Assembly: GCA_937770485.1 (NCBI GenBank)
Contig: CALJHX010000016.1
Coordinates: forward strand, 40,943-104,942
Source: an uncultured Verrucomicrobiae bacterium
Lineage (GTDB): Bacteria; Verrucomicrobiota; Verrucomicrobiia; Limisphaerales; UBA1096
Direction of reading: 5' to 3'
Length of the DNA: 64,000 nucleotides
Shown: one piece after another, positions 39,150-58,647 of the stretch
Position numbering within the stretch: position 1 is the first letter of the stretch
Layout: every line of letters begins with the position of its first letter
Notes under the pieces: generated by a model
What the model saw: only the letters and a program-made list of their open reading frames with translations
What the model was told of the DNA's origin: nothing
The model's database searches: none
Position numbers and translations under genes: made by a program

Positions 39150-39212
39150 AGCTAAATTAAGATAGCAACTACACAGACACAGAAGGTGACAACGTTTACA
39201 AAAAAACGCCAA

Positions 39213-39247
39213 GTTATGATCCTGACGAACCACCGGGCTGCTCCACC
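39213..39247. repeat. Partial copy of tRNA-fMet (possible att remnant)
   Basis: These 35 bases match 58105-58139 of the intact tRNA-fMet gene at 32 positions, in the same orientation. They cover the D arm and anticodon arm on the 5' side. The acceptor stem and T arm are absent, so this is not a working tRNA. Together with the tRNA it flanks the 39.2-58.1 kb region as a direct repeat. Confidence 0.6.
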
Positions 39248-43759: not shown

Positions 43760-44239
43760 ATGAAACACCTCCTACTAACAACAATCGCAGCCGTGGTGCT
43801 GGTGGGGTGTTGTACTCAAGAACCGCCGTCAACAAAATCGACTATCACCACAATTCACAATGCTGTAATTGAAGGAGACATCCAAGCCGTCAATCAAAGT
43901 TTAGAGGACAGTTTGGATATCAATTCGAAAGATGTAAATGGTTGGGCTGCTATGCATTTAGCGGCTATAGGGGGTAATAGTGTTATTACCGGATTACTTC
44001 TTAAAAGCGGGGCAAAAGTGAATGAACGTACAGAGTCTGGATGGACTCCTTTGCATCTTGCTGACAACAAGGATATTGCTCAATTGCTTATCACAGAAGG
44101 AGCAAATCTGAATACGAAGAATCATATTGGCGAAACACCCTTAGATTGGGCCATCAAGCGAAAAGATATCGCAACCATCGACCTTCTCCGAAAACACGGC
44201 AGCAAGACGGGTGAAGAATTGAAAGCTGAAAGAAAATGA
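43760..44239 (+). CDS. Ankyrin-repeat lipoprotein, head and tail type
   Basis: 159 residues. MKHLLLTTIAAVVLVGC is a lipoprotein signal with lipobox LVGC. Three to four ankyrin repeats follow (GWAAMHLAAIGGNSV, GWTPLHLADNKDIA, GETPLDWAIKRKDI). It ends with LLRKHGSKTGEELKAERK. The start DNA is nearly identical to genes at 47069, 48005, 48514 and the minus-strand 56708. The end DNA is the tail module found behind several unrelated genes downstream. Its TGA overlaps the next ATG (ATGA). This looks like one of the parental shells of the array. Function is presumably protein binding at the membrane. Confidence 0.87.
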   Translation: MKHLLLTTIAAVVLVGCCTQEPPSTKSTITTIHNAVIEGDIQAVNQSLEDSLDINSKDVNGWAAMHLAAIGGNSVITGLLLKSGAKVNERTESGWTPLHLADNKDIAQLLITEGANLNTKNHIGETPLDWAIKRKDIATIDLLRKHGSKTGEELKAERK

Positions 44240-44838
44240 AAAACCTACTAATCACAATCATAAGTATACTGTTCGGAGGGTTCGCCCAAGCCGACTCTAA
44301 ACCCTACAAGGGAAAGTTTCATCAGATTCCCGGCAAGATTGAGGCGGAGCATTATGATGAAGGCGCTCCCGGAATGGCCTATCATGATGTGGATGAAAAA
44401 AACCATGGGGCCGACTACCGTGAAGTCACCCAGGTGGATATTGAGAAGCGCTCGGATGCCTCCAATGGCCATGGCATAGGTTGGACGCGCAAAGGCGAGT
44501 GGATTAATTATACCGTGGATGTCAATGAATCGGGCACCTACACCATCGAGATGCCGGTAGCATCCGAAAAAGTTGGCGGACTGTTTGTTCTTGAGATTAA
44601 GGGTAAAGCCATTTGCGCACGTATACACATTCCGGATACAGGTGGATGGGATAAACTTAAACTAATCGAGTGCGGAAACGTGAATCTGGCTAAAGGGCGA
44701 CATGTCATTAGAGTGGTGATGCTCGCTGAAGGCCAATCAGGCAGTATTGGTGATATCGATTATTTCAAGTTTACGAAAAAATCTTCGACTTCAAAAGCTT
44801 CCTCCGCAAACACAGCGCCAAGGCCAAGCAAGAATTGA
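44236..44838 (+). CDS. Secreted CBM6-like carbohydrate-binding protein with tail scar
   Basis: 200 residues with a cleavable signal (MKNLLITIISILFGGFAQA). The body is CBM6-like: GKIEAEHYDEGAPGMAYHD, HGIGWTRKGEWINYTVDV, SGTYTIEMPVAS and GSIGDIDYFKF. The last fifteen residues (KASSANTAPRPSKN) do not belong to the fold: their DNA is the ankyrin tail module read in another frame. Start overlaps the preceding ankyrin gene at ATGA. No catalytic domain is attached, so it is a binding module alone. Confidence 0.82.
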   Translation: MKNLLITIISILFGGFAQADSKPYKGKFHQIPGKIEAEHYDEGAPGMAYHDVDEKNHGADYREVTQVDIEKRSDASNGHGIGWTRKGEWINYTVDVNESGTYTIEMPVASEKVGGLFVLEIKGKAICARIHIPDTGGWDKLKLIECGNVNLAKGRHVIRVVMLAEGQSGSIGDIDYFKFTKKSSTSKASSANTAPRPSKN

Positions 44839-44855
44839 AAGTTGAAGAGAAATGA
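44799..44855 (+). repeat. Tail module behind the CBM6 gene
   Basis: A diverged copy of the ankyrin tail (CTCCGCAAACAC core, AAGAATTGAAAG). It ends in ATGAAACAA, which starts a 25-codon head-like peptide (44852-44929) without a body. Confidence 0.7.
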
Positions 44856-44929
44856 AACAAACCTCTCACATATTAATCCTAAAAATTCTATTAGCACGGT
44901 CCTCCAAGCGATCTTTAAGTGAAAAATGA
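44852..44929 (+). other. Body-less 25-codon head-like ORF
   Basis: Reads MKQTSHILILKILLARSSKR and stops four residues after SLSEK. It begins exactly at the ATGA of the preceding tail module, and its stop overlaps the next gene start at 44926. Likely the remnant of a head whose body was lost, or a leader peptide that couples translation to the oxidoreductase. Confidence 0.35.
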
Positions 44930-46659
44930 TGAATCGTCGTGAAAGCTTTCTTAAATTGGGCGCCGGTGTGGCGATTACATCTGTTGGTTTAGCCGGCTGT
45001 AACTTGCTTTCCGGTCGATTGGCTAAACCGAATAGGAAGGAATTAAAAGCGGATCTGGTTGTTATCGGTGGCGGACTTGGCGGCTGCGCTGCTGCATTGT
45101 CAGCTTTAAGTTCCGGCTTGAGGGTGATCATGACTGAGGAAACTGACTGGATAGGCGGTCAGTTAACCTCTCAGGGTGTACCGCCCGATGAACATCGTTG
45201 GATTGAATCGTTCGGTTGTACCCGAACTTATCGGAAGTTCCGCAACGCTATTCGGGATTATTATCGCTACCACTACCCTCTCACAGACAATGCGAGGCAG
45301 CTAAAAAATCTCAATCCAGGCAGCGGTTCCGTCTCTCGCCTATGCCATGAGCCGAGGGTAGCACTAGCCTGTCTGGAGTCACTGCTCGCTCCGTTTAAAG
45401 CCAACGGGCAGCTGAAACTACTGTCGCAAACAAAACCGATTGCCGCTGAATTGGTTAGTGACAGTATTCGCTCTGTTGAGGTGTTCAACATTGTTACCGG
45501 GCATTCGCTTATCTTGAACGGTTCGATCTTTGCCGATGCAACGGAACTGGGTGACTTGTTACCCCTGGCCAATTGCGAGTTTGTCACCGGTACGGAGGGC
45601 AAAAAAAAGACCGGCGAACTCCACATGCCGGATAAGGCGTCCCCGGACAATCAACAGGCTTTTACCATGTGCTTTGCCGTTGACCATGTTATAGGAGCGG
45701 AACACGTAATCGATAAGCCGAAAGCGTACGATTTCTGGAGCAGTTATATCCCGGACTTGATGCCCTCATGGCCAGGGCGCTTGCTTGATTTCACCTACAC
45801 TCATCCGTCGAGCGGTGAATCCAAGCAACTGGGGTTCAATCCCAAGGGGCCACACAAGATTGGTATTATCAATCTCTGGACATATCGGCGAATCCTTGCC
45901 CAGTCAAATTTTAACCCAGGGAGCGGTCTTAGGGACATCAGTCTGGTCAATTGGCCTCAAAATGATTATTTACTCGGCAACCTTGTCGGCGTTTCAGACG
46001 AGGAACGCAACCGGCATATCGATCGATCCAAACAGTTGAGTTTGTCGCTTCTTTACTGGCTGCAAACCGAGGCCCCGAGAGATGACGGAGGAGAGGGCTG
46101 GCCCGGTTTGAGACTTAGAAAGGATGTTATGGGAACGAATGACGGCTTGGCGAAATATCCCTATGTCAGGGAGTCGCGGAGGATTAGAGCCATGACTACA
46201 ATTGTTGAGCAGGATTGCGGCAGGGAAAACCGAGCATTAGTGACGGGCAAAAAGGAAAGCCAAGTCCAAGCAAAACGCTACCACGACTCGGTAGGAATTG
46301 GTCATTACCAAATCGATTTGCATCCGAGCACGGGCGGGGACAACTACATTGACTTCGCGGCATTGCCTTTTGAGTTGCCGCTAGGCGCCCTGATCCCCGA
46401 GCGAGTCAGCAACCTCATCGCTTGCTCTAAAAACATCGGCACAACACATATCACTAACGGCTGCTATCGCCTCCACCCAATAGAGTGGAACATCGGTGAG
46501 GTCGCTGGCCATTTGGCTGCGACAGCGATAGCGAATTCCGTACAGCCAAAGGCGGTTTGGGAAAACCGCAAACTCCTCTCTTCTTTTCGGGGCTTCCTAC
46601 ATGAGATTGGCGTTGAAACCAGCTGGCCTCCTCCGCAAACACGGCGGCAAGACGGGTGA
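44926..46659 (+). CDS. FAD-dependent oxidoreductase, Tat lipoprotein, with tail scar
   Basis: 577 residues. The start NRRESFLKLGAGVAITSVGL combines a twin-arginine motif with a lipobox (LAGC, Cys25), so it is probably exported folded and lipid-anchored. ADLVVIGGGLGGCAAALSAL is the FAD-binding Rossmann motif; EETDWIGGQLTSQGVPPDEH and the later NIGTTHITNGCYRLHPIEWNIG are blocks of the FAD_oxidored family (PF12831 type) common in this phylum. The final [10 protein letters not shown] is the ankyrin tail module read out of frame, replacing the native end. Substrate unknown. Confidence 0.85.
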   Translation: MMNRRESFLKLGAGVAITSVGLAGCNLLSGRLAKPNRKELKADLVVIGGGLGGCAAALSALSSGLRVIMTEETDWIGGQLTSQGVPPDEHRWIESFGCTRTYRKFRNAIRDYYRYHYPLTDNARQLKNLNPGSGSVSRLCHEPRVALACLESLLAPFKANGQLKLLSQTKPIAAELVSDSIRSVEVFNIVTGHSLILNGSIFADATELGDLLPLANCEFVTGTEGKKKTGELHMPDKASPDNQQAFTMCFAVDHVIGAEHVIDKPKAYDFWSSYIPDLMPSWPGRLLDFTYTHPSSGESKQLGFNPKGPHKIGIINLWTYRRILAQSNFNPGSGLRDISLVNWPQNDYLLGNLVGVSDEERNRHIDRSKQLSLSLLYWLQTEAPRDDGGEGWPGLRLRKDVMGTNDGLAKYPYVRESRRIRAMTTIVEQDCGRENRALVTGKKESQVQAKRYHDSVGIGHYQIDLHPSTGGDNYIDFAALPFELPLGALIPERVSNLIACSKNIGTTHITNGCYRLHPIEWNIGEVAGHLAATAIANSVQPKAVWENRKLLSSFRGFLHEIGVETSWPPPQTRRQDG

Positions 46660-46679
46660 AGAATTGAAAGCTGAAGGGA

Positions 46680-46683
<4 letters not shown>
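46627..46683 (+). repeat. Tail module behind the FAD oxidoreductase
   Basis: In the ankyrin frame it codes [17 protein letters not shown]. The oxidoreductase enters it in another frame and stops at 46659. Over 48-49 bases it is identical to the tail at 55639-55693 on the other strand. Its last bases form the ATG of the next gene (46680). Confidence 0.8.
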
Positions 46684-47450
<767 letters not shown>

Positions 47451-47480
47451 TCAATACACCTCAACCATTTGAACGCTGAT

Positions 47481-47975
47481 ATGAAAACGAAAGATAGTAG
47501 ATGGAAAATAATTTCGAATGTTGCAGTTCTAATCTCAATTATTTTCGTAATTTACGAGTTAAGGCAGAACCACCAAGCATTGAAAGAGTCCAATCTCATT
47601 GCACGAATGGAGTCTGCAAATCACGCTTACACTGGCTCTTCACTTATGCGCCAAATGATTATTGGCAATGCTGAGGTGTGGAATAAGGCCAACAAAGGTA
47701 TCCCTTTAAACGAAGAAGAGGCATTAATAAGAAGAATGATTTCTCATACATGGTATTTTAATCACGGGCAGATGTATGAGCAGGCCGTTCACTTGAAAGA
47801 CGAGAGATTAATTAAAAGTCGCATTAGTTTGCCTCAAAGATTTGTCCCACTCTTTCCGGGGATCAAAGCAGATTGGTCATCTGTAAAGGATGAGTATATT
47901 TCTAAAGGATATGAAGCTTTGGTTGAACCATACGAAAAAGCATTTCAAAAACTTGATCAAGCCAAACAACTTTAA
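47481..47975 (+). CDS. Membrane-anchored protein of unknown function
   Basis: 164 residues from ATG 47481 (an in-frame ATG at 47469 adds four). One N-terminal membrane segment (IISNVAVLISIIFVIYEL) is followed by a helical soluble part with RQNHQALKESNLIARMESAN and NKGIPLNEEEALIRRMISH. I recognise the general layout of small hypothetical proteins of marine bacteria but no named family. It lacks the shared head and tail, yet is flanked by the CTCCACCACTTGAAC-type repeat on both sides (47452-47476 diverged, 47974-48004). Confidence 0.65.
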   Translation: MKTKDSRWKIISNVAVLISIIFVIYELRQNHQALKESNLIARMESANHAYTGSSLMRQMIIGNAEVWNKANKGIPLNEEEALIRRMISHTWYFNHGQMYEQAVHLKDERLIKSRISLPQRFVPLFPGIKADWSSVKDEYISKGYEALVEPYEKAFQKLDQAKQL

Positions 47976-48004
47976 GCCAACCCGCTCCACCACTTGAACA
48001 CAAA
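47974..48004 (+). repeat. Short spacer repeat CTCCACCACTTGAAC
   Basis: The motif CGCTCCACCACTTGAAC directly precedes the ATG at 48005. Copies lie at 48488-48513, 51031-51093 and 51448-51513, with a diverged copy at 47452-47476. Always in the same orientation, between small genes. Confidence 0.7.
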
Positions 48005-48517
48005 ATGAAACATCTCCTACTAACAACAATCGCAGCCGTGGTGCTGGTGGGGTGTGGTGAGTCCGAGCACCAGCACTCGCACGATAACGATCGCATTCAT
48101 ACCGAAGGCGTCAAAGCCGCAACTCAAGCATGGGCCGACGCCTTCAACAGTAGAGTCCTAGACAAAATCCTAGCTCACTACTCTGCGGAGGCTGTATTCT
48201 GGGGAACCGTTTCACCAACCCTTCGCGACGAACCATCTGAAGTGCGCGATTATTTCATACCTATTGGCCCGGATGCCAGAGTATTGATCGGCGAGCAAAA
48301 CCCCCGTGTTTTTGGTGATATTGCGATCAACACTGGTTTCTATACATTCACAGATGTACGTGACGGGGAAAAGATCACTTTCGCAGCGCGCTTTAGCTTT
48401 GTATATAAACGTGACGCAAATGGCATTTGGCTGATAGTAGACCACCACTCATCCGCCGTCCCTGTGCCTAAAACTGCCGACGAAACGAACCAACTCCACC
48501 ACTTGAACACTAAATGA
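48005..48517 (+). CDS. SnoaL/DUF4440-like lipoprotein
   Basis: 170 residues. The head MKHLLLTTIAAVVLVGCGES is identical at residue level to the 43760 gene up to the lipobox Cys. The body has the NTF2-like layout: VKAATQAWADAFNSRVLDKI, LAHYSAEAVFWG, FAARFSFVYKRDANGIWLIVDHHSS. This matches the SnoaL-like / CaMKII-association-domain family, whose members bind small ligands or act as isomerases. The last residues (TNQLHHLNTK) are encoded by the spacer repeat, so the native end has been replaced. Stop overlaps the next ATG. Confidence 0.8.
   Translation: MKHLLLTTIAAVVLVGCGESEHQHSHDNDRIHTEGVKAATQAWADAFNSRVLDKILAHYSAEAVFWGTVSPTLRDEPSEVRDYFIPIGPDARVLIGEQNPRVFGDIAINTGFYTFTDVRDGEKITFAARFSFVYKRDANGIWLIVDHHSSAVPVPKTADETNQLHHLNTK
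48488..48513 (+). repeat. Short spacer repeat CTCCACCACTTGAAC
   Basis: Copy of the spacer motif lying inside the 3' end of the SnoaL-like gene and directly before the next head (ATG 48514). Confidence 0.7.
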
Positions 48518-49023
48518 AACACCTCCTACTCACAACAATCGCAGCCGTGCTGGTTGTGGGGTGTGGTGAGTCGCAGCTACCAGAACCGCCGACAGCCAAA
48601 GCACCAAACATTTCAATATACGATGCTGCCAGAAGAGGTGACATCGTAGCCGTCAAACAGCACATCGCGGCTGGTACGGATGTCAATGTGATGAAGATTG
48701 TTGGTTTAGAGGCATTGACTCCTTTGCGTCTTGCGGCTCAATATAATCAATTGGAAGTCGTTGAACTGCTTATCGCCGAAGGTGCGGATGTGGATGAGAG
48801 GGTGTTCGCTGGAACGACTTCTTTGTTTGGTGCGGTTCATAAAGGTCACAAGGAAATCGCCAAACTGCTAATCGAAAAAGGTGCGGATGTGAATGCGAAG
48901 GATGATTTTGGCCGAACACCGCTAGATTTGGCCATCCAAAAAAGCCGCACTGAAACCGCCGACCTCCTCCGCAAACACGGCGGCAAGACGGGTAAAGAAT
49001 TGAAAGCTGAAGGGAAGTATTAG
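48514..49023 (+). CDS. Ankyrin-repeat lipoprotein, intact head and tail
   Basis: 169 residues: MKHLLLTTIAAVLVVGC (lipobox VVGC), then ankyrin repeats (LTPLRLAAQYNQLEVVELL, TTSLFGAVHKGHKEIAKLL, GADVNAKDDFGRTPLDLAI) and the in-frame tail [19 protein letters not shown]. This is the best-preserved shell of the array. Its DNA matches the tail modules found behind unrelated genes and the fragment at 55639-55802. Confidence 0.88.
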   Translation: MKHLLLTTIAAVLVVGCGESQLPEPPTAKAPNISIYDAARRGDIVAVKQHIAAGTDVNVMKIVGLEALTPLRLAAQYNQLEVVELLIAEGADVDERVFAGTTSLFGAVHKGHKEIAKLLIEKGADVNAKDDFGRTPLDLAIQKSRTETADLLRKHGGKTGKELKAEGKY

Positions 49024-49028
49024 TTCTT

Positions 49029-49673
49029 TTGAATAAGCAAGTTGAACATGCTTTTATGTTAAAATGTGTAGCCGTAATTATAACTACATGCTTTGTGTAT
49101 TCCAATTTGAGATATGTTATATTTGGCCCTGAGGGCGTAGCACATATTCCGTTGTTTATTATGAATAAAGCCTTGTCTTGGTCAGGGCTCGCTACTATCG
49201 GATTGTCGAAGGTGCTTCGACAGACTGAAGCGAGCAGAAAGGCAGGTTTGCTGGGTGCGTTAATGATAGGCATGCATGTGGTGGTGTCCTTACTCATCCT
49301 ACGCCCCGAGTATCTTGGTAAGTTTTTCAACAGTATAGACGGTATGCGTATGACATGGAAAGGCGAAGCAGCAATTCTATCTGGTGTACTCGGTTTGGCG
49401 TGTCTGACTTGCCTTCTTTGGAACACGGCAACCACACATAAGGAAGCAGATAAATCAATTCGGATAAGAAGCGTTTTACAGTGGAGCATTAATGCTTTGC
49501 TTTTCTGCGGCGCACTTCATGTAGCATTCATGGGGTGGGATGATTGGTTTGAGCCAACTAAATGGGCCAAGTTTGGTTACTTACCCCCCATCACAATGCT
49601 CTCCTTCTTAACAGCGGTGATATTTCTTTTCGTTCGCAGACCTAATGTGAAAACACGGCGGCAAGACGAGTGA
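49029..49673 (+). CDS. Polytopic membrane protein with tail scar
   Basis: 214 residues from a TTG; an in-frame ATG at 49056 is an alternative. Five or six membrane helices (CVAVIITTCFVYSNL, GLLGALMIGMHVVVSLLIL, AAILSGVLGLACLTCLLW, LLFCGALHVAFMGW, MLSFLTAVIFLFV). His residues in helices (GMHVVVSLL, CGALHVAF) give a ferric-reductase/MsrQ-like look, which I hold only as a possibility. The end NVKTRRQDE is the ankyrin tail read out of frame. Confidence 0.7.
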   Translation: MNKQVEHAFMLKCVAVIITTCFVYSNLRYVIFGPEGVAHIPLFIMNKALSWSGLATIGLSKVLRQTEASRKAGLLGALMIGMHVVVSLLILRPEYLGKFFNSIDGMRMTWKGEAAILSGVLGLACLTCLLWNTATTHKEADKSIRIRSVLQWSINALLFCGALHVAFMGWDDWFEPTKWAKFGYLPPITMLSFLTAVIFLFVRRPNVKTRRQDE

Positions 49674-49699
49674 AGAATTGAAAGCTGAAGGCAAATGAA
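49651..49699 (+). repeat. Tail module behind the membrane protein
   Basis: ACACGGCGGCAAGACG..TGAAGAATTGAAAGCTGAA ending in ATGAAAGCCTTACTG. The head-like start at 49696 runs immediately into antisense DNA of the serine hydrolase gene, so this junction was cut off. Confidence 0.75.
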
Positions 49700-49703
49700 A
49701 GCC

Positions 49704-50804
49704 TTACTGATTTACTTTCAAGATGCTCAACGTTTCTTTGAGTTTTGTGTATTCAATTTTGTTTTCGAGTAGCGGCTTGTCTTTAAAGGATGGAAGGAGA
49801 TATTTCCACACTAGGTCGAGTTGGTCCTGCATTTGACGACAATCGGCTGTCATGGCGATCACTGCATCCTGTTTTGGGAGTACCAAGCAAAATTGACCGT
49901 CTTTGCCATCGCCGCGATAAGCATCGTGCCGGCATTGCCAAAATTGGAACCCATAGCCTACTTGCCAATCTGTTTTGGGGTAGACAACAGATTGGTCATT
50001 GTCAACCTGCTTGCTTGTCGCAGCAGCGATCCACTTTGCCGGTACAATCTGTTTCCCATTCCACTTGCCATTCTGTAGATATAACTGGCCGAATTTTGCA
50101 ATGTCCTCAGTACGCAAGAAAAGACCATAGCCGCCAATCGTAACGCCCTGCGGGCTTGTCTCCCATTTGGGAGTAGAGATGCCGAGTGGGTCGAATAGTC
50201 GCGGCCCAAGGTAATCCACCACCTTTTCACCGGTCAGTTTTTGAACGATGGCCGATAGCATGTAGGTTGCTGCCGAATTGTATCGAAAATGTGTTCCAGG
50301 TTTATGCGGTACGGGGTGTTCCAGAAATTTTTCAGTCCAAACATCCTGACCTGTAAGTCGAATCACAGGATCTTGCCCAGTGGACATCGAAAGCAGATCG
50401 CGCACCCGCATCGCGTTCAGGTTGGCAGATGGCTTACTTGGGGCGTTTCCCGGAAAAAACTTCAGAACTTTTTCGTCTATATTCAATTTTCTTTCGGCCA
50501 CTGCTAATCCTACAGCCGTAGAGGTAAAGCTCTTACTGAGTGACCAAAGAATATGTGGTTTATCTCTCGACTCTGGGGCCCACCAGCATTCAGCGACGAC
50601 ATGCCCGTGGCGAACGAGCATGAAACTGTGCATCGTATTGATTTTTTTGTCCGCCATTTCGACAAAAGTTCGGATATCTTCAGAAGATATTCCTTGTGCC
50701 TCGGGTGTGCTTCGAAGGAGGACAGATTCAGAGACTGCATTGTTTTTGGCCAAGATAATGAACAAAAATAAAATGAAAGCACGTAATGGGTAAATTGCTT
50801 TCAT
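49704..50804 (-). CDS. Serine hydrolase, beta-lactamase class C family
   Basis: 366 residues from ATG 50804 (MKAIYPLRAFILFLFIIL, signal peptide or anchor); a longer frame adds 21 residues. The catalytic SxxK lies in ILWSLSKSFTSTAVGLA, the Tyr motif is RYNSAATYMLSAIV and the third region is VGYGFQFWQCRHDAYRG, as in the penicillin-binding/esterase EstB-like group. Probably an esterase or D-aminopeptidase-like enzyme in the cell envelope, not necessarily a resistance determinant. Opposite strand to the cassette-like array; carries the single island copy of TTGGCCAA (50746). Confidence 0.85.
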   Translation of the reverse strand: MKAIYPLRAFILFLFIILAKNNAVSESVLLRSTPEAQGISSEDIRTFVEMADKKINTMHSFMLVRHGHVVAECWWAPESRDKPHILWSLSKSFTSTAVGLAVAERKLNIDEKVLKFFPGNAPSKPSANLNAMRVRDLLSMSTGQDPVIRLTGQDVWTEKFLEHPVPHKPGTHFRYNSAATYMLSAIVQKLTGEKVVDYLGPRLFDPLGISTPKWETSPQGVTIGGYGLFLRTEDIAKFGQLYLQNGKWNGKQIVPAKWIAAATSKQVDNDQSVVYPKTDWQVGYGFQFWQCRHDAYRGDGKDGQFCLVLPKQDAVIAMTADCRQMQDQLDLVWKYLLPSFKDKPLLENKIEYTKLKETLSILKVNQ

Positions 50805-51030
50805 GAAAACAGATTGAGATAAGTATAATATCAACATGGCAAAGCTTTCTCCAGTACAGTAATGCACACCGAGCCGACTGGTTCATTATCGCAGTTGTTG
50901 GGAATCACCTTCGTGTATTTCACAGTTCGGCTGAGCCTTTTATCCATCTCGCGCAACACTTGTTAAGTCCTGAAATCGCGTCAACCTCAAAAACAATTCC
51001 GATTGTCGTAAGCGATCGGCCTCTAAACAA
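50805..51030. other. Intergenic region, no gene recognised
   Basis: Short open stretches on the plus strand near 50885-50965 look like degraded coding sequence but match nothing I can name. Confidence 0.35.
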
Positions 51031-51093
51031 CTAAACCAGCCCGCTCCACCACTTGAACGGGGCAGGGTTGTTGTTCATGGGCAACAGTTAAAA
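51031..51093 (+). repeat. Long spacer repeat, copy A
   Basis: About 65 bases starting ACCAGCCCGCTCCACCACTT and ending AACAGTTAAAACG. Aligns along its length with 51448-51513. The shorter CTCCACCACTTGAAC copies near 48 kb are its 5' part. Confidence 0.75.
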
Positions 51094-51136
51094 CGCCTTG
51101 AAAACTGCGCTCATCGGGGTGACGGTCGGCCTAGCT

Positions 51137-51451
51137 ATGCACATACTTATCATAAACTTCAATCTAAGTGATCACATCAGTCGTGATGATTTTCAAAAAA
51201 TCTGCGAAGAAGCAGTCGGCGTATTTACCAAACTAGAAGGATTACAATCTAAATACTGGTTAGCAAATCATGAGGAAAACACCTATGGCGGCGTCTACTT
51301 CTGGAAGAGTCGCGAAGCTATGCAAAACTATCTCGATTCGGACTTTTTCAAAGAGGTGTTAACCAGCAACAATCCTGACTTTAAAAATATCACGGCCAAG
51401 ACCTTTGAAAATTTGGAGGAGTTTACAAAACAGAATTTAAACATGTGCTAA
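51137..51451 (+). CDS. YdhR/ABM-like small monooxygenase-fold protein
   Basis: 104 residues from ATG 51137 (MHILIINFNLSDHISRDDF). Upstream in-frame sequence derives from the spacer repeat. Layout is a dimeric alpha/beta barrel: ILIINFNL strand, DFQKICEEAVGVFTKLEGL helix, SKYWLANHEENTYGGVYFWK (typical W..N..T..YGGVYFW of the YdhR family) and EAMQNYLDSDFFKEVL. Family members are small heme-free monooxygenase-like proteins with poorly known substrates. Sits between the two long spacer repeats like a cassette. Confidence 0.75.
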   Translation: MHILIINFNLSDHISRDDFQKICEEAVGVFTKLEGLQSKYWLANHEENTYGGVYFWKSREAMQNYLDSDFFKEVLTSNNPDFKNITAKTFENLEEFTKQNLNMC

Positions 51452-51513
51452 ACCAACCCACTCCACCACTTGAACGCCGCAGGATTGTTATTCAGCGGCA
51501 GCAGTTAAAACGG
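51448..51513 (+). repeat. Long spacer repeat, copy B
   Basis: Starts ACCAACCCACTCCACCACTT, ends GCAGTTAAAACGG. Together with copy A it brackets the YdhR-like gene as a direct repeat about 417 bases apart. Confidence 0.75.
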
Positions 51514-51703
51514 GTTGAAAAATACGGATCATCTGATCATCCAAGCTTGACCGACTAAATCGAACAATATAATTATTTTCCAGTTCCTTTACGTAAAATA
51601 AAAAAACTAACATCACTATTGGTTGTGGGATTGTGCTTGGCTGTGTGCCCTGAAGCATTTCAGAAACGTCTCCAAGGTCATTTTCTGCCTGAATTAAAAG
51701 TGA

Positions 51704-51763
51704 CTTCACAGGCTTCACAGGCTTCACAGGCTTCACAGGCTTCACAGGCTTCACAGGCTTCAC
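51704..51763. repeat. 9-bp tandem repeat CTTCACAGG x 6.7
   Basis: Six perfect copies of CTTCACAGG plus CTTCAC. On the plus strand one frame reads Q-A-S repeats; on the minus strand K-P-V repeats. A nine-base unit keeps frame, so copy number could change without breaking an overlapping reading frame. It directly abuts the excisionase remnant. Confidence 0.9.
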
Positions 51764-51859
51764 TCCAAGTCGGGCAAGCTTCGCGCTGTCCGTCTTGGTC
51801 TGGTGCTACGGATTAGGGAAGCGGACTACGAGTCATTCCTCGAACAGAACCGCGATTAG
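51761..51859 (+). pseudogene. C-terminal remnant of an excisionase-type HTH_17 protein
   Basis: The plus strand codes HSKSGKLRAVRLGLVLRIRE and then ADYESFLEQNRD before TAG at 51857. GKLRAVRLG-x-x-x-RIRE-x-D-x-x-xFL is the second half of the helix-turn-helix_17 family of MerR-like/excisionase proteins. The first helix-turn-helix half is replaced by the 9-bp tandem repeat. A terminator follows 23 bases later. Fits the recombinase remnants of the same island. Confidence 0.55.
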
Positions 51860-51881
51860 GCAGGGTAAGATGTTCATCACT

Positions 51882-51915
51882 ACCCGTACTGGCTTTCGCT
51901 GGTGCGGGTTTTTTG
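51882..51915 (+). terminator. Rho-independent terminator before umuD
   Basis: ACCCGTACT / GGTGCGGGT stem (two G-T pairs), ten-base loop and a T run. It overlaps the most upstream possible umuD start (51902), which argues for the ATG at 51932. Confidence 0.75.
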
Positions 51916-51931
51916 TTTCAATCCCCTTGCT

Positions 51932-52345
51932 ATGCAACTTTGTCAGGCAACCAGAGGGAATGAAGTAGTTTTCGACCTGTTCGATGAATGCGTCAGTGCG
52001 GGATCGCCTCAACCTCCCTTTGGTCAATCTGCCGAAAAAGTGAACCTCAACGATCTGCTAACAGTCAACGAGGTCGCTACTTTCTTTTGCCGTGTTTCGG
52101 GCCGCTCAATGGAACCGACAATGCGTGATGGCGATATTCTGATGGTGGATAAAAGTATCGAACCCAAGATTAACTTGGTGGTGATTGCCACCGTTAATGG
52201 CGAGATGACCGTGAAGCGGTTAACTGAAGTCAATGGGAACCTGACACTTACTGCTGACAACCCGAAATACCCGAATGTGAATGTCGAAGATTTCGATGAG
52301 TCAATGATTTGGGGTGTGGTAAAGAACGTAATACATTCGTTATAA
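51932..52345 (+). CDS. umuD: UmuD-like S24 self-cleaving peptidase
   Basis: 137 residues from ATG 51932, close to E. coli UmuD (139). Catalytic Ser59 is in SGRSMEPTMRDGD and Lys95 in GEMTVKRLT. An Ala-Gly bond at residues 23-24 (VSAGSPQP) sits where UmuD/LexA proteins cleave themselves on RecA contact. The processed form would be the subunit of a translesion polymerase, but no umuC follows: the next gene is an unrelated DUF2071 protein. No LexA box was recognised upstream. Confidence 0.85.
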   Translation: MQLCQATRGNEVVFDLFDECVSAGSPQPPFGQSAEKVNLNDLLTVNEVATFFCRVSGRSMEPTMRDGDILMVDKSIEPKINLVVIATVNGEMTVKRLTEVNGNLTLTADNPKYPNVNVEDFDESMIWGVVKNVIHSL

Positions 52346-52403
52346 TTACGCCCCGCAGATTTATTTTAGGTTAAATTACGTTATCTTTCTTTAAATAATT
52401 ATA

Positions 52404-53057
52404 ATGAGCGACATCATTTCTATGAACTGGACCAAGGTATTGTTCTTGAACTTAGAAGTAGATAAAGACCATCTCAGGACTCATATTCCCAGCGAGTTAG
52501 AAATAAGGACGCATAACAAAAAATCCTATATTTCACTTGTATTCTTCAATTTAGAAGGCCCAGGTATAGATTTTTTTAATATCCCTCTTTCGTTATCTGA
52601 ATTTAATATTAGAACTTATGTTCGATATAAATCTTACGAAGGTATATATTTTCTTACGCTCGATGTTAACAATTGTTTACTTCCAATATTTGTTAATAAA
52701 TTTTTCAAACTTAATTACCACAAAAATTCTGTAGATTATAATACAGAAAAAAATTTAAAACGTGCCAATTGGACGAATAGAAAATTTAATTTAACTAACT
52801 TTTCTTTCTTATTTGAAGTTGGAGAACCGATGCAAACAAGCTCCTATTCTCATTTCATAACAGAAAATTATCTTTATTTAAGTAAACCTATAAATAGTAT
52901 CTATTATAATAAGGTTTATCATAAAAAATGGGATCTTAATCATGTAGATTTACATCAGATCAAAAACCTTAAACTATTCGAAGAAAACTCAATTCATTCC
53001 GCTTTTTATGGTGATCAACTAAAGGTAAGAACCGGATTCCCGGTAAAACTAACATGA
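52404..53057 (+). CDS. DUF2071 (YqjF-like) protein, very AT-rich
   Basis: 217 residues. WTKVLFLNLEVDKDHLRTHI, PSELEIRTHNKKSYISLVFF and NIRTYVRYKSYEGIYFLTLD follow the DUF2071/YqjF family pattern (acetoacetate-decarboxylase-like fold, function unknown). Base composition is far more AT-rich than anything else here, with many AAT, TTA and ATA codons. This suggests recent arrival from a low-GC donor such as a Bacteroidota. Adjacent recombinase remnants fit that view. Confidence 0.78.
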   Translation: MSDIISMNWTKVLFLNLEVDKDHLRTHIPSELEIRTHNKKSYISLVFFNLEGPGIDFFNIPLSLSEFNIRTYVRYKSYEGIYFLTLDVNNCLLPIFVNKFFKLNYHKNSVDYNTEKNLKRANWTNRKFNLTNFSFLFEVGEPMQTSSYSHFITENYLYLSKPINSIYYNKVYHKKWDLNHVDLHQIKNLKLFEENSIHSAFYGDQLKVRTGFPVKLT

Positions 53058-53199
53058 AAATAAAGCCTAAATATCAAATATATCTTTTGTAATATAATTG
53101 CAAATACAACTGTCTATATTACTAATAAGCTTTCCCCTGAAATAAATAAAAAGCCTAAATGCGGCAAGTGTGGGCCAAGGTTTTTGCCTTTAACGGCAG
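53058..53199. other. AT-rich spacer, no gene
   Basis: Very AT-rich continuation of the DUF2071 segment up to the recombinase remnant. Two AAAAAGCCTAAAT-like stretches (about 53061 and 53146) are a possible short direct repeat. Confidence 0.3.
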
Positions 53200-53745
53200 C
53201 TATCGGCAGTGGGTCGGCAGGATAGCCCAGAATGCCTTTGCCTGCTCCTTTGTGACCGCACCGTTGTAGTCGTTCTTGAACAGCGTGGTGTTGGGGTGGC
53301 CGAGGTTCTTTGAAGTCAAACCGGCATCGTTGTGCTGGGCAAAGTGGTAAGATGCATAACAGTGGCGTAGGCAGTCGTCCGGCTAATCCCTGCCTATGAC
53401 CTTCTTGGCTTTTATAAATTTGCACTTCAGGTTTTTGACCTTCTGAAATGAACCGTCCCGTTTCTTGATGTGCTTGATCCACTTGTTGAAGTTTTGAGTA
53501 AGCGGCTCAATCCACCGGTCTTCACCGTCCTTGGCAATTTCCTTTGGGACAAATATCTGATCCTCGTTGATGTCGTCGTCGATCATATTAAGTGCTTCCC
53601 GCTCGGGTCGCAGCCCGCCAAAAACACAGAGGCAAGCGTAGGGCGTCAGCGTTGGCTCCTCGGTCTCGCAGTAGGTCAGAAGCTTTTTGACCTCTCCAGG
53701 TGTGAGCACTTGCAGTTTCCGGCGACAGGGTATGATACAATACAA
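53200..53745 (-). pseudogene. Tyrosine recombinase remnant (C-terminal catalytic part, frameshifted)
   Basis: The minus strand codes LTPGEVKKLLTYCETEEPT, VFGGLRPEREALNMI (first catalytic Arg) and WIEPLTQNFNKWIKHI. It breaks near 53383 (VIGRD stop) and continues one frame over as DCLRHCYASYHFAQ (R-H-x-x-Y-like), AGLTSKNLGHPNTTLFKNDY (H and nucleophile Tyr) and FWAILPTHCR to a TAG at 53200. The N-terminal DNA-binding half is missing: it is cut at about 53730 by a TPR fragment on the other strand. Homologous to the recombinase at 56778-57922. Confidence 0.75.
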
Positions 53746-53938
53746 CTTAGCGTGCTACTGCGCCCAACTGGGCCAACTGGATGCCGCTCAAGAGTATCTG
53801 GATAAGTCGTACGAGCTTGGGGATGCAAAGCAGATCAAGCTTATGGCGCTCGATGATGAAGATCTAAAGCCGCTATGGGAAGATGAGGCGAAGTTGCGTT
53901 ACTTGGCCCCTTCAGTTTCAATTCCTCGGCAGTCTTAG
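53732..53938 (+). pseudogene. C-terminal TPR-protein fragment
   Basis: 68 codons: MIQYNLACYCAQLGQLDAAQ, YLDKSYELGDAKQIKLMA and LDDEDLKPLWEDEAKL. This is the last tetratricopeptide repeat and ending of a common TPR protein; upstream the frame enters recombinase DNA, so the front is lost. It marks a deletion or insertion junction near 53730. Confidence 0.5.
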
Positions 53939-54037
53939 GTCCTCGTCGAAGGAGGAGACTACAAAGAAGAAGAACATATCATCTTCGCTTTAGCTGACGA
54001 GTGATTGTGTCTATCTGCATTGTTGTAAGGCTCTAGA

Positions 54038-55642
54038 TCACGGCTTCGTTGAATCGACCCAGGGCAATCGATCGAAGGCGTCTTTGAGGCGGGGATCACC
54101 GGTGGTATCCATCACCTGCTCAACCCGACCGCGCAGTGTTGTGAGGACAGAGCGCAATTCTGGAGCGGTGGCCAAATTGACCAATTGATTAGGATCCTTT
54201 TTCAAGTCGTAGAGTTCCTCGCCGGATCGGTGGTGCATCGTCAGATGGAAGAGGTCCTTGTCACCAGGCTTTTCACGCCGCGACATCATCCAGGCCTTGG
54301 TGAGGCTGCCATCGAGATCTCGGTAAGCGGGTGTTGTTGACAGTCCCATCTTGTAGAGATCATCCGACTCGGTAAGTTCCGCTGCGTTGTATGGATCGCC
54401 CATAGGCCAACGTTCGTGCTTGAAGTTACGAATGTAGAGATAGTTCTTGGTGCGGACCGCACGAATCGGATAAGGCATATTGCCTGGTCGGGAATTGTGG
54501 AAGTGAAGCTCGCGACCGATGATCACAGAGTCCCACTTCGGATCGATCCAACCGCTCTTTTTGCTGGATAGTTTATGTAAAAAGCTGCGGCCGTCCATCG
54601 TCGCTGGCACTTTAACTTCCGAGAGATCAAGTAAAGTCGGTCCTATGTCCATGACGCTGACAAAATCCTCGACGCGTCTGCCGGAGGGAATTCCTTTCGG
54701 CCAGCGAACCATCAGGGGAACACGTGTGGCGAGATCGTAACAGTTAGTCTTGCCACGCGGGACGCCGGGAATGCCATGATCGCCAGAGAGAATCACCACG
54801 GTATTATCGAGTTCACCGAAGCTTTTGAGTTCATCGAGCATCGCGCCAAGCATGAGATCGAGAGCGAGCACTTCGCCGAGGTAATCCGAAAAATCGCGCC
54901 GCACATCGTGGGCATCGGGCAGGAACTTCGGGAGCAATCCCACCAGCGAATCGGGTTCGATGCCCCAAAGATCCATCCCGGAGTCGGGGGTGTAAGGGCG
55001 ATGGACGTTGATGCTTCCAAAAACGAAGAAAAAGGACTGCTCTTCGGATCTGCCGGCTAGCACTTGCCGAATTTCCTGACGGCAGTTTTCGACAATCTCA
55101 TCGTGCCTGCTTTTGCGCTCGGCCTGGCTCTTTGCCGCCCCCACATAGAGCCCATATTGTTCATATCCGACTTTCCCCAGAGAACGCACGTTCTTCGGAT
55201 GCGGGCTTGGAGTGAAAGCAAATGTCTTCCTCGACTTCTGCACGTAATACCCACTTTCGCGGATGAGATCGCCAAACTTCGGCAGGCTTTGCATGGGATT
55301 ATAGTACCCTTTCCAATTGCTTGCCTTGCCATTGAGAAAAGCGCCTGAACCACAGTTCCAAAAGTAACGTCCTGTAGCGAGCGAGGCACGACAAGGGTTG
55401 CAGGACGCGACAGGGACAAATGCGTTATCAAAAACCACCCCTTCACGACCAATGCGATCAATATTGGGTGTTGAGATTACATCGTTGAGGGAAGGATTAT
55501 TAGTATCAGCGTAGATGCTCGCATAACGCCCCCAATCATCTGCAAAGAAGAACAAAATATTGGGCCGCTGCTCCGCTGCATGGACGCCGTCAGTTACGAA
55601 TACGATCAGTACGGCTGCAATTGCTATTAGTTTTTGTTTCAT
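54038..55642 (-). CDS. Secreted sulfatase (arylsulfatase A superfamily)
   Basis: 534 residues. Signal peptide MKQKLIAIAAVLIVFVTDGVHA, whose DNA partly resembles the shared head. RPNILFFFADDWGR supplies metal ligands, and C81-N-P-C-R85 with ASLATGR is the formylglycine C-x-P-x-R signature (Cys instead of the usual Ser in the fourth position). VILSGDHGIPG gives the second metal site. VPATMDGRSFL and RSGEELYDLKKDPNQLVNLA are typical of S1-family polysaccharide sulfatases. Its ATG overlaps the end of the ankyrin tail (ATGA at 55642). The family specificity is not decidable. Confidence 0.9.
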   Translation of the reverse strand: MKQKLIAIAAVLIVFVTDGVHAAEQRPNILFFFADDWGRYASIYADTNNPSLNDVISTPNIDRIGREGVVFDNAFVPVASCNPCRASLATGRYFWNCGSGAFLNGKASNWKGYYNPMQSLPKFGDLIRESGYYVQKSRKTFAFTPSPHPKNVRSLGKVGYEQYGLYVGAAKSQAERKSRHDEIVENCRQEIRQVLAGRSEEQSFFFVFGSINVHRPYTPDSGMDLWGIEPDSLVGLLPKFLPDAHDVRRDFSDYLGEVLALDLMLGAMLDELKSFGELDNTVVILSGDHGIPGVPRGKTNCYDLATRVPLMVRWPKGIPSGRRVEDFVSVMDIGPTLLDLSEVKVPATMDGRSFLHKLSSKKSGWIDPKWDSVIIGRELHFHNSRPGNMPYPIRAVRTKNYLYIRNFKHERWPMGDPYNAAELTESDDLYKMGLSTTPAYRDLDGSLTKAWMMSRREKPGDKDLFHLTMHHRSGEELYDLKKDPNQLVNLATAPELRSVLTTLRGRVEQVMDTTGDPRLKDAFDRLPWVDSTKP

Positions 55643-55802
55643 TCCCCTTCAGCTTTCAATTCTTCACCCGTCTTGCCGCCGTGTTTGCGGAGGGTGTCTA
55701 CGGTTTCAGTGTCATCAGCGTTGTACTTGATGGCATTATCTAGTGGTGTTTTGCCGCCATCATGCTTCGCATTTACATCAGCACCATTAGCCATCAATCT
55801 AC
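55639..55802 (-). pseudogene. Head-less ankyrin fragment with tail module
   Basis: Minus-strand frame LMANGADVNAKHDGGKTPLD then NAIKYNADDTETVDTLRKHG and the GGKTGEELKAEGE tail. Upstream of about 55802 the DNA belongs to the esterase, read in another frame. So an ankyrin gene has kept its last repeat and tail while its body was replaced. The tail end overlaps the sulfatase start. Confidence 0.7.
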
Positions 55803-56708
55803 GGTTGTCTTGATTCCCGCGGACTCGAGGAATTTCCATATATCCTGATAGATTTGCGTGAGTTCCTTAGGAGAGAATTCACCGTGTTTCTTTCCCGTGA
55901 AGGTCAGTAGCCGTTCCTTTATTCCAACTTTTCGGAGCTTTTTGTGCATGTTCACCGCTTGCTCGTATGGTACCGCTGCATCCTCGGTTCCGTGTATCGT
56001 GATAACCGGAGCGCCTCCATTACGAACATAGTTGATCGGTGAAAGTGTGCGCACATATTCGTCGATATCAGCATCCTCGCCGAACCAATGAATTGGTGCC
56101 GGATTTATCGAAAAGTCAGTTGCCCCGTACCAATTTACAATCGCAGCAACTTTTTTGTTTTCGCCTATTTTCAATTTTCCACCGCATAGGATATCGCCTT
56201 CTCTGAGCATGCCGGTTAAAAGTGAAAGAAGTCCACCTGCTGACCCGCCGCTAACCACAACTCGGTCGGGGTCGATGTCGTACTTCTCGGCGTTGGCATA
56301 CACCCACTCCAAAGCGACTAGGCAATCGTCCACTGCAGCTGGGGCTTTGGCATCTTGAGCCAAGCGGTAGTTGATGCTGATTACAACCCAATCTCGATAA
56401 ACATAGGGCAGCACATTTAGAGCACGTTCGTCTTTGGATCCTTCAACCATACCCCCGCCATGGATATACAACAATGTTGGCTTTTTACCCTTACCATCGT
56501 TCACCCACCATGGATGTTCGCCGATGTATTTGTCCGGGAGGTATATGTTGAGGCGCAGTTTTTTTTCGCCAACCGTTCGATAAACTACATCATGCTTTAC
56601 GAGCCCCATATTCAACGCCGCGGCTTGATCGATTGATTGGGCGGGGCGGAAGGCGCATCCGGCAGTCAAAATTACGGCTGCGATTGTTGTGAGTAGGAGG
56701 TGTTTCAT
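55794..56708 (-). CDS. Alpha/beta-hydrolase (BD-FAE/HSL-like) esterase lipoprotein
   Basis: 304 residues. The head MKHLLLTTIAAVILTAGC is the shared array head with lipobox TAGC. The body has the oxyanion motif YIHGGGMVEGSKDE, INYRLAQDAKAPAAVDDCLV, nucleophile VSGGSAGGLLSLL (GxSxG), the acid loop VITIHGTEDAAVPYEQA and the His in GKKHGEFSP: a complete catalytic triad of the BD-FAE/carbohydrate-esterase group. The native end (FLESAGIKTTVD) runs eight bases into the ankyrin fragment. An esterase inside an ankyrin-lipoprotein shell. Confidence 0.87.
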   Translation of the reverse strand: MKHLLLTTIAAVILTAGCAFRPAQSIDQAAALNMGLVKHDVVYRTVGEKKLRLNIYLPDKYIGEHPWWVNDGKGKKPTLLYIHGGGMVEGSKDERALNVLPYVYRDWVVISINYRLAQDAKAPAAVDDCLVALEWVYANAEKYDIDPDRVVVSGGSAGGLLSLLTGMLREGDILCGGKLKIGENKKVAAIVNWYGATDFSINPAPIHWFGEDADIDEYVRTLSPINYVRNGGAPVITIHGTEDAAVPYEQAVNMHKKLRKVGIKERLLTFTGKKHGEFSPKELTQIYQDIWKFLESAGIKTTVD

Positions 56709-57922: not shown

Positions 57923-58067
57923 TTTGGTCCCGTGATGGTCCCGTGATTTCGACCCAAAAAAGCGTATTTCAGGTGCTATACACGTGGACGTTAACGGCAG
58001 GAAACAAGGGAACAATGGACACCAAAAAACCCCCGGCATCATTGAAGATACTCCGAGGGTTTTAAAG

Positions 58068-58144
<77 letters not shown>

Positions 58145-58233: not shown

Positions 58234-58647
58234 CTATTTGCCAATCAAGCCGCTGACATATCCAGCCTGCCGCAGTCGCTCCGCCAGTGTCTCCTCGCCC
58301 TGCGGCAATCCGACGCCGGGAAGCTCATTGCGATGGCCAATGGGATTGGACTCATAGCCGAAGCGGGTTTGATATCGTCCCGTTATTAGGCCCGCCCTTG
58401 AGGCACTACAAAATGGTGCCGTGACGTAGCCGTTAGTGAATCGCACGCCATTGCCAGCAATCGAGTCGATGTGCGGAGTGGGAATCTCCGTGTTCCCCTG
58501 GCAGCCCAGTTCCCTATAACCCAGGTCATCCGCCAACAGGATGACTATATTTGGCTTGCCCAAGCTACGATCCGCTGCTCGCGTTTGGCCAAACGCTGTA
58601 AAGCTGAGCGCAAACTGACAAATCAGCTTGGCCAACCGGTGTCGCAT
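58234..58647 (-). pseudogene. Sulfatase cut off after the active-site region
   Basis: 137 residues: signal peptide MRHRLAKLICQFALSFTAFG, metal site PNIVILLADDLGYRELGC and formylglycine motif C80-S-A-S-R84 (AGLITGR), then a stop right after AGYVSGLIGK, where full sulfatases continue GKWHLG for another 300 residues. The lost part would lie toward the tRNA-fMet gene 90 bases on. It is the third gene of a minus-strand unit with two Gfo/Idh genes (four bases after the second). Contains palindromes at 58585 and 58628. Confidence 0.7.

What the first reader, a model, noticed from the sequence alone, without database searches (positions are those of the whole stretch)
43760..56708. Array of interchangeable gene bodies inside shared lipoprotein heads and ankyrin tails
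Genes at 43760, 47069, 48005, 48514 and minus 56708 share nearly identical start DNA (signal peptide plus lipobox). Genes at 43760, 47069, 48514 and the fragment at 55639 share a tail of about 50 bases. The same tail DNA sits behind unrelated genes (CBM6, FAD oxidoreductase, membrane protein, esterase), read in the wrong frame. Tail and next head overlap at ATGA. This looks like a tandem ankyrin-lipoprotein family in which bodies are swapped by recombination between conserved ends: a modular surface-protein diversification system or a graveyard of one.
Basis: partly seen in the sequence, partly recalled or inferred. Interest (0 to 1): 0.85.

Follow-up and report, generated by a model that had tools for sequence, protein, structure and literature searches.

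The report
Swappable genes between shared start-stop joints
In one genus of ocean bacteria, a short DNA joint that ends one gene and starts the next is repeated up to dozens of times per genome, and quite different genes sit in, and have changed places between, copies of it, likely by ordinary recombination at the joint, which gives unrelated enzymes the same predicted export tag.

Summary
The genome has 56 tail (T) and 28 head (H) copies. T and H often form one ~100-nt junction: stops in all three frames, SD-like GAAGGG, ATGA overlap, signal-peptide-like start. T occurs in 16 of 20 other genomes of the genus and 0 of 77 others of the order. T is constrained as DNA, not only as protein. Between species, shared blocks of 0.5-4 kb end at T/H in 47 of 62 free edges, against 16% at random. 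Neighbours are reassorted, in one case order is swapped, while nifJ loci of four relatives stay collinear. CotH homologues exist with native ends, with H plus T in frame 1, and with another head plus T in frame 0. FAD oxidoreductase carries T right after its native end motif in 51 of the 120 listed homologues. No IntI over cut-off (14 genus genomes), no foldable attC, no fixed crossover. Best reading: homologous exchange at T-H plus illegitimate capture at gene ends. Exchange is seen in assemblies; enzymology and benefit are inferred. Many copies are decayed.

The parts
43760..44239 (+). Ankyrin lipoprotein gene with head H (43760-43795) and in-frame tail T (44186-44230)
44186..44230 (+). Tail T, ankyrin frame, 2 of 45 mismatches; the gene's stop overlaps the next start (ATGA)
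44236..44838 (+). CBM6 protein gene (PF03422), weak head, ends in a worn T (44802-44846, 9 of 45 mismatches) read in frame 1
44926..46659 (+). FAD_oxidored gene (PF12831) whose last codons and stop come from T (frame 2)
46631..46675 (+). Tail T, 0 mismatches, behind the FAD oxidoreductase
46680..47069 (+). 129-aa lipoprotein-like protein (no Pfam hit), H-like head, overlaps the next start
47069..47425 (+). Ankyrin lipoprotein gene, head one codon shorter than H, frameshifted before T (47397-47441, 0 mismatches)
47469..47975 (+). 168-aa protein without Pfam hit, between T and element E
47979..47999 (+). Element E (spacer module) before H
48005..48517 (+). H head (48005-48040) fused in frame to a SnoaL/DUF4440 body; E (48488-48508) in its 3' end
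48514..49023 (+). Ankyrin lipoprotein gene with exact H (48514-48549) and exact T (48967-49011)
49029..49673 (+). 214-aa predicted membrane protein (no Pfam hit) ending in T (49645-49689, 5 mismatches) in frame 2
51038..51111 (+). E-P4 spacer module, first copy, before the ydhR gene (51137-51451)
51455..51528 (+). E-P4 spacer module, second copy, behind the ydhR gene
54038..55642 (-). Sulfatase gene (PF00884), weak H-like head starting on an ATGA overlap behind T
55639..55839 (-). Ankyrin remnant with exact T (55648-55692, minus strand)
55794..56708 (-). H head (56673-56708) fused in frame to a BD-FAE esterase body (PF20434)

Best explanation
A repeated ~100-nt junction, made of the last ~50 nt of one ankyrin-lipoprotein gene (T) and the first ~50 nt of the next (H), is the joint at which unrelated gene bodies have changed places within and between species of this Verrucomicrobiota genus, likely by homologous recombination between junction copies plus occasional illegitimate joining of new genes to its edges. 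Shown from sequence: most T copies hold a stop codon in all three frames, T-H overlaps at ATGA, H encodes a signal-peptide-like start with a lipobox-like motif in frame with many unrelated bodies, T is constrained as DNA, and blocks shared between species end at T/H. Inferred: arrays of co-directed, translationally coupled genes carry many near-identical junctions, and these give RecA-type recombination enough homology to move a body from one junction to another or to import one from a relative. Inferred: a gene is first captured by one-sided homology at T-H and short-homology joining at its own 3' end or signal peptide; selection keeps joins that leave the domain whole and in frame with H. 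The junction would then work as a frame-tolerant stop, ribosome site, start and export adaptor. Many copies have decayed, so the arrays hold both likely working fusions and debris.
For: DNA-level constraint: T codons are nearly fixed (GGC 98% in T against 20% in the bodies of the same ORFs; CTC 88% against 12%; ACG 86% against 16%), and copies outside the ankyrin frame are nearly as conserved (3.2 against 2.7 mismatches per 45). Stops: 157 of 216 T copies have a stop in all three frames, 13.7% in shuffles. T ends genes in several frames: CBM6, CotH, MFS, sulfatase and isochorismatase (frame 1); FAD oxidoreductase, PhoPQ-related and sulfatase (frame 2). Exchange: 47 of 62 free edges of 38 inter-species blocks lie within 60 nt of T/H, random 16.1%. 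X-T-Y in the own genome, X-T-other in G007, other-T-Y in G009. Order A-B in G006, B-A in G017. A sulfatase-like body (by reading) has three different left contexts in G006, G009 and G008. nifJ loci of G006, G008, G009 and G013 are collinear with the own genome over 6-10 kb. Some blocks exceed core identity (G006-G009 98.7%, 97.4% against 90.3%; own-G009 98.5% against 90.8%). End replacement: CotH homologues with native ends (P0135-P0140, 63-66% identical), H + T frame 1 (own, P0121 at 96%), other head + T frame 0 (P0134 at 81%); FAD oxidoreductase, T right after the native 'GVExxWP' in 51 of the best 120 homologues by a motif count; sulfatase with H in G017, native signal in G006 and P0241. 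Crossovers are spread over the junction rather than at one point.
Against: No experiment or read data; all genomes are metagenome assemblies, and in relatives T copies sit near contig ends more than expected (22 of 145, expected 6.5), though 0 of 71 do in the own genome, so some apparent reassortments in relatives could be misjoins. Junctions kept with both neighbours between assemblies are rare: four block pairs, which are only two distinct and worn elements (7-10 mismatches), and one intact T-H between ankyrin genes (own against an ALOHA contig, 86.4% over 940 nt). Many block identities equal core identity, so horizontal transfer is not needed for those. 15 of 62 edges are not at T/H. Of 165 heads, 40 lead to short frames, 23 lack ATG and 6 lead to out-of-frame ankyrin bodies. 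T is not frozen everywhere: several FAD oxidoreductase homologues carry worn tails. RecA dependence, capture steps and reinitiation are not tested. ComEC was not detected in the own, incomplete genome.
Confidence: 0.68

Rival explanations
1. Ordinary tandem paralogues: the ankyrin lipoprotein genes are recent duplicates that still share ends, and unrelated genes were inserted among them at random and then trimmed by deletions, with no special role for T-H.
For: 49 of 165 heads lead in frame into ankyrin bodies and 88 of 196 tails are in the ankyrin frame; many copies are decayed.
Against: T codons are nearly fixed while bodies vary; T is joined to at least seven Pfam-named families in two frames besides its own; block edges sit at T/H about 4.7 times more often than random; CotH homologues show three combinations of ends.
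Confidence: 0.14
2. An integron-like site-specific system: T-H (or the spacer E-P4) is the recombination site of an unrecognised recombinase that excises and inserts cassettes.
For: Cassette-like, co-directed units (66 sense against 5 antisense non-ankyrin segments), order swapping, conserved short element behind many genes, a mild cluster of 5' breakpoints at the ATG (7 of 25 at +48 to +51).
Against: No IntI over cut-off in the 14 genus genomes searched, while 2 of 7 other genomes of the order had one; no significant fold of T-H (z -0.91) or E-P4 (-0.56, +0.26); breakpoints spread over about 100 nt.
Confidence: 0.1
3. Assembly artefact: identical ~100-nt junctions made assemblers join wrong neighbours in metagenome data, so bodies only appear to be swapped.
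For: In relatives, T lies within 250 nt of a contig end in 22 of 145 copies against 6.5 expected. Junctions with both neighbours kept are rare: two distinct worn elements, one intact one.
Against: The own genome has 71 T copies and none within 250 nt of a contig end. Fusions with T or H cut at odd places, such as FAD oxidoreductase-T in 51 of the best 120 homologues from several databases and the CotH fusions, are not made by joining at an intact repeat. The same H-headed sulfatase-like gene occurs in G006, G008 and G009 assemblies.
Confidence: 0.1
4. Spread by copying from RNA (retro-insertion of transcripts), which would explain one orientation and gene-end joins.
For: Sense bias 66 to 5.
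Against: Reverse transcriptase (PF00078) in 1 of 21 genus genomes and not in the own, incomplete genome.
Confidence: 0.02

Closest known systems
Integron gene-cassette arrays (and CALINs)
   Same: Co-directed arrays of mostly single, unrelated genes, many followed by a conserved short element; order and content differ between relatives.
   Different: No integron integrase over cut-off in the 14 genus genomes searched, no foldable attC seen, no fixed crossover; the joint is coding DNA that supplies stop, start and a signal-peptide-like head. Definition of integrons taken from passages of PMC8618304.
T6SS effector-immunity arrays in Vibrio cholerae, formed by homologous and possibly homology-facilitated illegitimate recombination (PMC5361080)
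   Same: A conserved flank is proposed as anchor while non-homologous genes are joined behind it; arrays grow; no specific integration site (passages seen).
   Different: There T6SS clusters and effector-immunity pairs; here many loci, many enzyme families, and a two-sided joint that replaces both the gene end and the signal peptide.
Polymorphic toxins and Amoebophilus APD lipobox proteins with conserved N-termini (PMC3482391)
   Same: Constant export-related 5' part, variable rest; for the toxins, variation by recombination (passages seen).
   Different: There the constant part is a trafficking domain and the variable part a toxin or effector; here the constant parts are a signal peptide and a stop module, and the bodies named so far are mostly enzymes.
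Mycoplasma variable lipoprotein families such as Vpma
   Same: A lipoprotein gene family diversified by recombination (search listing and starts of abstracts only; a shared 5' signal region is recalled, not seen).
   Different: Vpma switching is Xer1-mediated site-specific recombination (abstract); here unrelated bodies, many loci, no fixed site.

Membership tests
Integron / CALIN | Integron integrase IntI | tested here: not met
   TIGR02249 over cut-off in 0 of 14 genus genomes (2 of 7 other genomes of the order); sub-threshold hits also ring in all 14 control genomes. 7 of the 21 genus genomes were not in this search, and the genomes are incomplete.
Integron / CALIN | attC sites: imperfect palindromes that fold as single strands | tested here: not met
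   T-H z -0.91, T alone 0.03, two E-P4 copies -0.56 and +0.26; 9 E-P4 copies share only a 6-bp predicted stem. No attC covariance model was available.
Integron / CALIN | Exchange at one fixed position of the site | tested here: not met
   48 breakpoints mapped near T/H range from -59 to +140 around the junction (T start 0, head ATG 50), with a mild cluster of 5' breakpoints at the ATG; BLAST edges are fuzzy.
Integron / CALIN | Co-directed gene cassettes with variable order and content | tested here: met
   66 sense to 5 antisense non-ankyrin segments; swapped order G006 against G017; reassorted neighbours.
Homology-facilitated illegitimate recombination arrays | Conserved anchor on one side, non-homologous join on the other | tested here: met
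   T joined at varying points to unrelated gene ends: FAD oxidoreductase, CotH, MFS and others. The process itself was not observed.
Homology-facilitated illegitimate recombination arrays | RecA dependence / DNA uptake | not testable with these tools
   Only gene content: DprA family in 12 of 21, ComEC family in 9 of 21 genus genomes; the three genomes at least 90% complete have both. The own genome has DprA, no ComEC hit.
Polymorphic toxin cassettes | Variable part is a toxin domain with a linked immunity gene | not tested
   No toxin or immunity library was run. 16 of the 20 proteins scanned got Pfam names (sulfatases, CotH, MFS, hydrolases and similar), 4 none.
REP/MITE-type intergenic repeats | Inverted-repeat structure | tested here: not met
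   T has only a 4-bp predicted stem, z 0.03.
Bacterial lipoprotein head | Signal peptide with lipobox ending in Cys | tested here: inconclusive
   H reads MKHLLLTTIAAV followed by VLVGC or similar; lipobox rule recalled, no signal predictor was run. Some fusions have lost the Cys.

The most novel reading that the evidence does not exclude
The T-H junction is an evolved plug-in adaptor: one ~100-nt piece of coding DNA that is at once a three-frame stop, ribosome site, overlapping start, export tag and recombination joint, so that almost any gene body dropped between two copies becomes a correctly ended, coupled and exported product. It is an integron-like gene-capture platform without integrase or att sites, with which a genus of ocean bacteria keeps trading surface and periplasmic enzymes.
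Probability: 0.35. Interest if true: 0.92.

Novelty: new variant of a known kind. Interest (0 to 1): 0.76.

Why it matters
It would show that gene-cassette shuffling does not need an integrase: a conserved gene border can serve as the joint and at the same time solve the expression problem of a captured gene (stop, start, export). It gives a concrete route by which marine Verrucomicrobiota could recombine their stock of sulfatases and other secreted enzymes. It may also explain why assemblies of the relatives break at these places, and it makes bacterial 'signal-exon shuffling' directly testable in population long reads.

Tried and rejected
Integron: rejected on IntI, folding and spread of crossovers. 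Retro-insertion: reverse transcriptase in 1 of 21 genus genomes. Phage- or plasmid-borne origin: the exact T pattern is in 0 stretches of the viral collection; two adjacent head genes (48005-49023) gave no match in the plasmid collection. RNA element: Rfam at gathering thresholds finds only a tRNA in the window. Horizontal transfer for every shared block: not needed, as many blocks are near core identity. A consensus fold of nine E-P4 spacers gave nothing convincing. Eight literature searches in the held open-access library listed no paper that describes this junction; subscription papers and preprints are not held.

Rows dropped before counts: one search used 62 of 76 edges of 38 blocks (14 edges lie less than 100 nt from a stretch end); one of the 38 blocks is the sulfatase flank right of the array, not an array unit. 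One search counted orientation for 71 of 77 non-ankyrin segments (longest ORF at least 100 aa), and a few of these are ankyrin genes missed by my word filter. The filter also files several ankyrin genes as non-ankyrin in frame 0, and two or three short frame-1/2 ORFs there are probably spurious; the frame claims rest on Pfam-named bodies. Stretches were chosen because they hold T; the random control used the same stretches. Of the 16 other genus genomes with T, array stretches were fetched from 7, and from those only part of their copies. The homologue tables show the best 120 of 7997, 957 and 1113 hits; the print of their ends was cut and partly repeated.
Full report
What is there. The window is part of a 3.3-Mb assembly in 46 contigs, 83% complete. 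The head DNA H (36 nt used as pattern) occurs 28 times and the tail DNA T (35 nt used) 56 times at 3 mismatches or fewer in this genome; reversed control patterns gave 0. In the fetched array stretches T columns are mostly 80-100% identical and H columns mostly 80-100%, while the ankyrin sequence further than about 15 nt from T falls to 30-60%. T and H often stand as one unit with the head ATG exactly 50 nt after the start of T. Its text is: ankyrin C-terminus, GAAGGG a few bases before the start, ATGA overlap, signal-peptide-like start and a Cys-containing motif. In the window the units are interrupted by a CBM6 protein, a FAD oxidoreductase, small proteins without Pfam hits, a SnoaL protein, a membrane protein, an esterase and a sulfatase.

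Not ordinary paralogue ends. In 88 in-frame ankyrin copies the codons of T are nearly fixed although the same amino acids use other codons in the bodies of the same genes: second Gly GGC 98% against 20%, Leu CTC 88% against 12%, Thr ACG 86% against 16%. Copies not in the ankyrin frame are almost as conserved (mean 3.2 against 2.7 mismatches in 45; 108 and 88 copies, all within a 9-mismatch cut-off). Between this genome and G009 the FAD oxidoreductase genes are 82.2% identical, but the 48 nt at T are identical, and none of 1651 body windows of that size reaches 47. T carries a stop in each frame in 157 of 216 copies; shuffled T does so in 13.7%.

Distribution. T is found in 16 of the 20 other genomes of the genus that were searched (1 to 41 copies) and in 0 of 77 other genomes of the order. 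In 84,980 species genomes the exact pattern hits 63 stretches; 52 belong to Verrucomicrobiota bins (Pedosphaera, Verrucomicrobia and the like), 11 to bins of other phyla, on contigs of 3.4 to 10.3 kb that may be misbinned. None is in the viral collection.

Exchange between species. I fetched 60 stretches from 7 relatives and compared them with each other and with 20 stretches of the own genome plus the window. After removing duplicates, 38 blocks of at least 500 nt and 85% identity remain. Of their 62 edges with free sequence on both sides, 47 lie within 60 nt of T or H in at least one genome; random points in the same stretches do so in 16.1%. Examples: a 4162-nt block shared by G006 and G009 at 98.7%; two blocks in order A-B in G006 and B-A in G017; two adjacent units of G017:C412, one matching G007:C22 (98.1%), the other G006:C143 (93.3%). 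In the own genome a prepilin-like body and a propeller-like body flank one T; in G007 the first is followed by something else, and in G009 the second is preceded by something else (body names are my reading, not a family search). A sulfatase-like body in G006, G009 and G008 has three unrelated left contexts that end at its start codon. At the nifJ locus G006, G008, G009 and G013 are collinear with the own genome over 6-10 kb. Core identity there is 90.3% for G006-G009 and 90.8% for own-G009, below several blocks (98.7%, 97.4%, 98.5%) but near others. Some exchanges thus look horizontal, others could be rearrangements. For G007 and G017 no usable core locus was found.

End replacement of individual genes. 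Homologues of the FAD oxidoreductase that lack T end soon after a motif such as GVEIRWPENLETAS; in 51 of the best 120 the motif is followed at once by T-derived residues (motif count). CotH homologues P0135-P0140 (63-66% identical) have other signal peptides and end LRLWRVPSIF or similar; the own gene and P0121 carry H and T in frame 1, and P0134 carries another head and T in frame 0. A sulfatase has H in G017, but a native signal in G006 and in its nearest homologue P0241 (96%); 0 of 120 listed homologues have an H-like head. Pfam domains of such bodies are often whole: FAD_oxidored 1-407 of 416, Sulfatase 1-300 of 301, DUF4440 1-107 of 107, 3keto-disac_hyd 1-187 of 187; the isochorismatase (108-150 of 175) and GDPD (1-69 of 244) matches are partial. 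Across 8 genomes 37 of 165 heads run in frame for at least 80 aa into bodies that the ankyrin word filter does not flag; a handful of these are still ankyrin by eye, and the rest include, by Pfam or by reading, sulfatases, cytochrome-type proteins, beta-lactamase-family hydrolases, CotH and a pectate-lyase-like protein.

How it works, shown and inferred. Shown: joints, reassortment in assemblies, replacement of both gene ends, three-frame stops, one orientation (66 sense, 5 antisense). Breakpoints on the 5' side of shared blocks spread over -21 to +140 and on the 3' side over -59 to +109, counted from the start of T; 7 of 25 of the 5' ones lie at the ATG (+48 to +51). That is what homologous recombination over a short repeat gives rather than a fixed-site recombinase. 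Joins of T to new genes at various points are as expected for illegitimate joining with homology on one side. DprA-family genes are found in 12 and ComEC-family genes in 9 of 21 genus genomes, both in the three genomes at least 90% complete, so DNA uptake is possible but unproven; ComEC was not found in the own genome. Inferred: RecA-type exchange, capture order, coupled translation, lipoprotein export and any advantage.

Against my reading. All data are assemblies. In relatives T is near contig ends in 22 of 145 copies (6.5 expected), in the own genome in 0 of 71. Junctions kept with both neighbours between assemblies are rare: four block pairs that are only two distinct worn elements, and one intact T-H between the own genome (C3) and a contig of an ALOHA bin (86.4% over 940 nt, ankyrin genes on both sides). 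One search also shows blocks with intact T repeated inside one assembly (MED719). Fifteen edges are elsewhere. Many heads and tails are debris: 40 of 165 heads lead to short frames, 23 lack ATG, 6 lead to out-of-frame ankyrin bodies. Worn tails exist behind FAD oxidoreductase homologues.

Comparison. It looks like an integron array but fails the defining tests made here (definition from passages of PMC8618304). The nearest process seen in print is the anchoring of new modules at a conserved flank proposed for T6SS immunity arrays (PMC5361080, passages); the nearest architecture is that of proteins with constant export heads and variable bodies (PMC3482391, passages). I therefore file it as a new variant of repeat-mediated module exchange, with a two-sided coding adaptor as the new feature.

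Noticed in passing
window 58068-58144 and 56888-58042, 53114-53745 (minus): A tRNA-Met with pieces on its left that I read as two broken tyrosine-recombinase genes; Pfam finds no family in the pieces scanned. A 38-nt match to part of the tRNA stretch also lies at 39210-39247 (89%), so the array may sit on a decayed island.
   Followed up: partly
window 58236-58241: Several relatives have about 1 kb more between the tRNA-Met side and the sulfatase than the own genome; the two matches overlap by 6 nt, as in a short-homology deletion.
   Followed up: no
window 51038-51111 and 51455-51528; L065, L052, L117: A second junction type, E-P4 (about 75-85 nt), lies between genes and before a related head; 19 E copies in the own genome at 2 mismatches or fewer.
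   Followed up: partly
heads at C1:46814, C16:97650, C1:40620; C28:2145, C16:84702; C2:77867, C30:52926: Upstream of some heads there are at least three further recurrent ~50-nt leaders, possibly promoters.
   Followed up: no
window 51704-51766: Nine-base tandem repeat CTTCACAGG, about seven copies.
   Followed up: no
window 51902-52345: S24-type peptidase domain gene (PF00717, LexA-like) not far from a broken recombinase-like piece.
   Followed up: no
own genome: 105 Ank_2 matches in a 3.3-Mb genome, many in clusters.
   Followed up: partly
L182, L185, L191, L193, L220, L221, L225, L226, L233, L235, L238: Exact T copies on contigs of bins named for other phyla; probably misbinned, but transfer is not excluded.
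   Followed up: no
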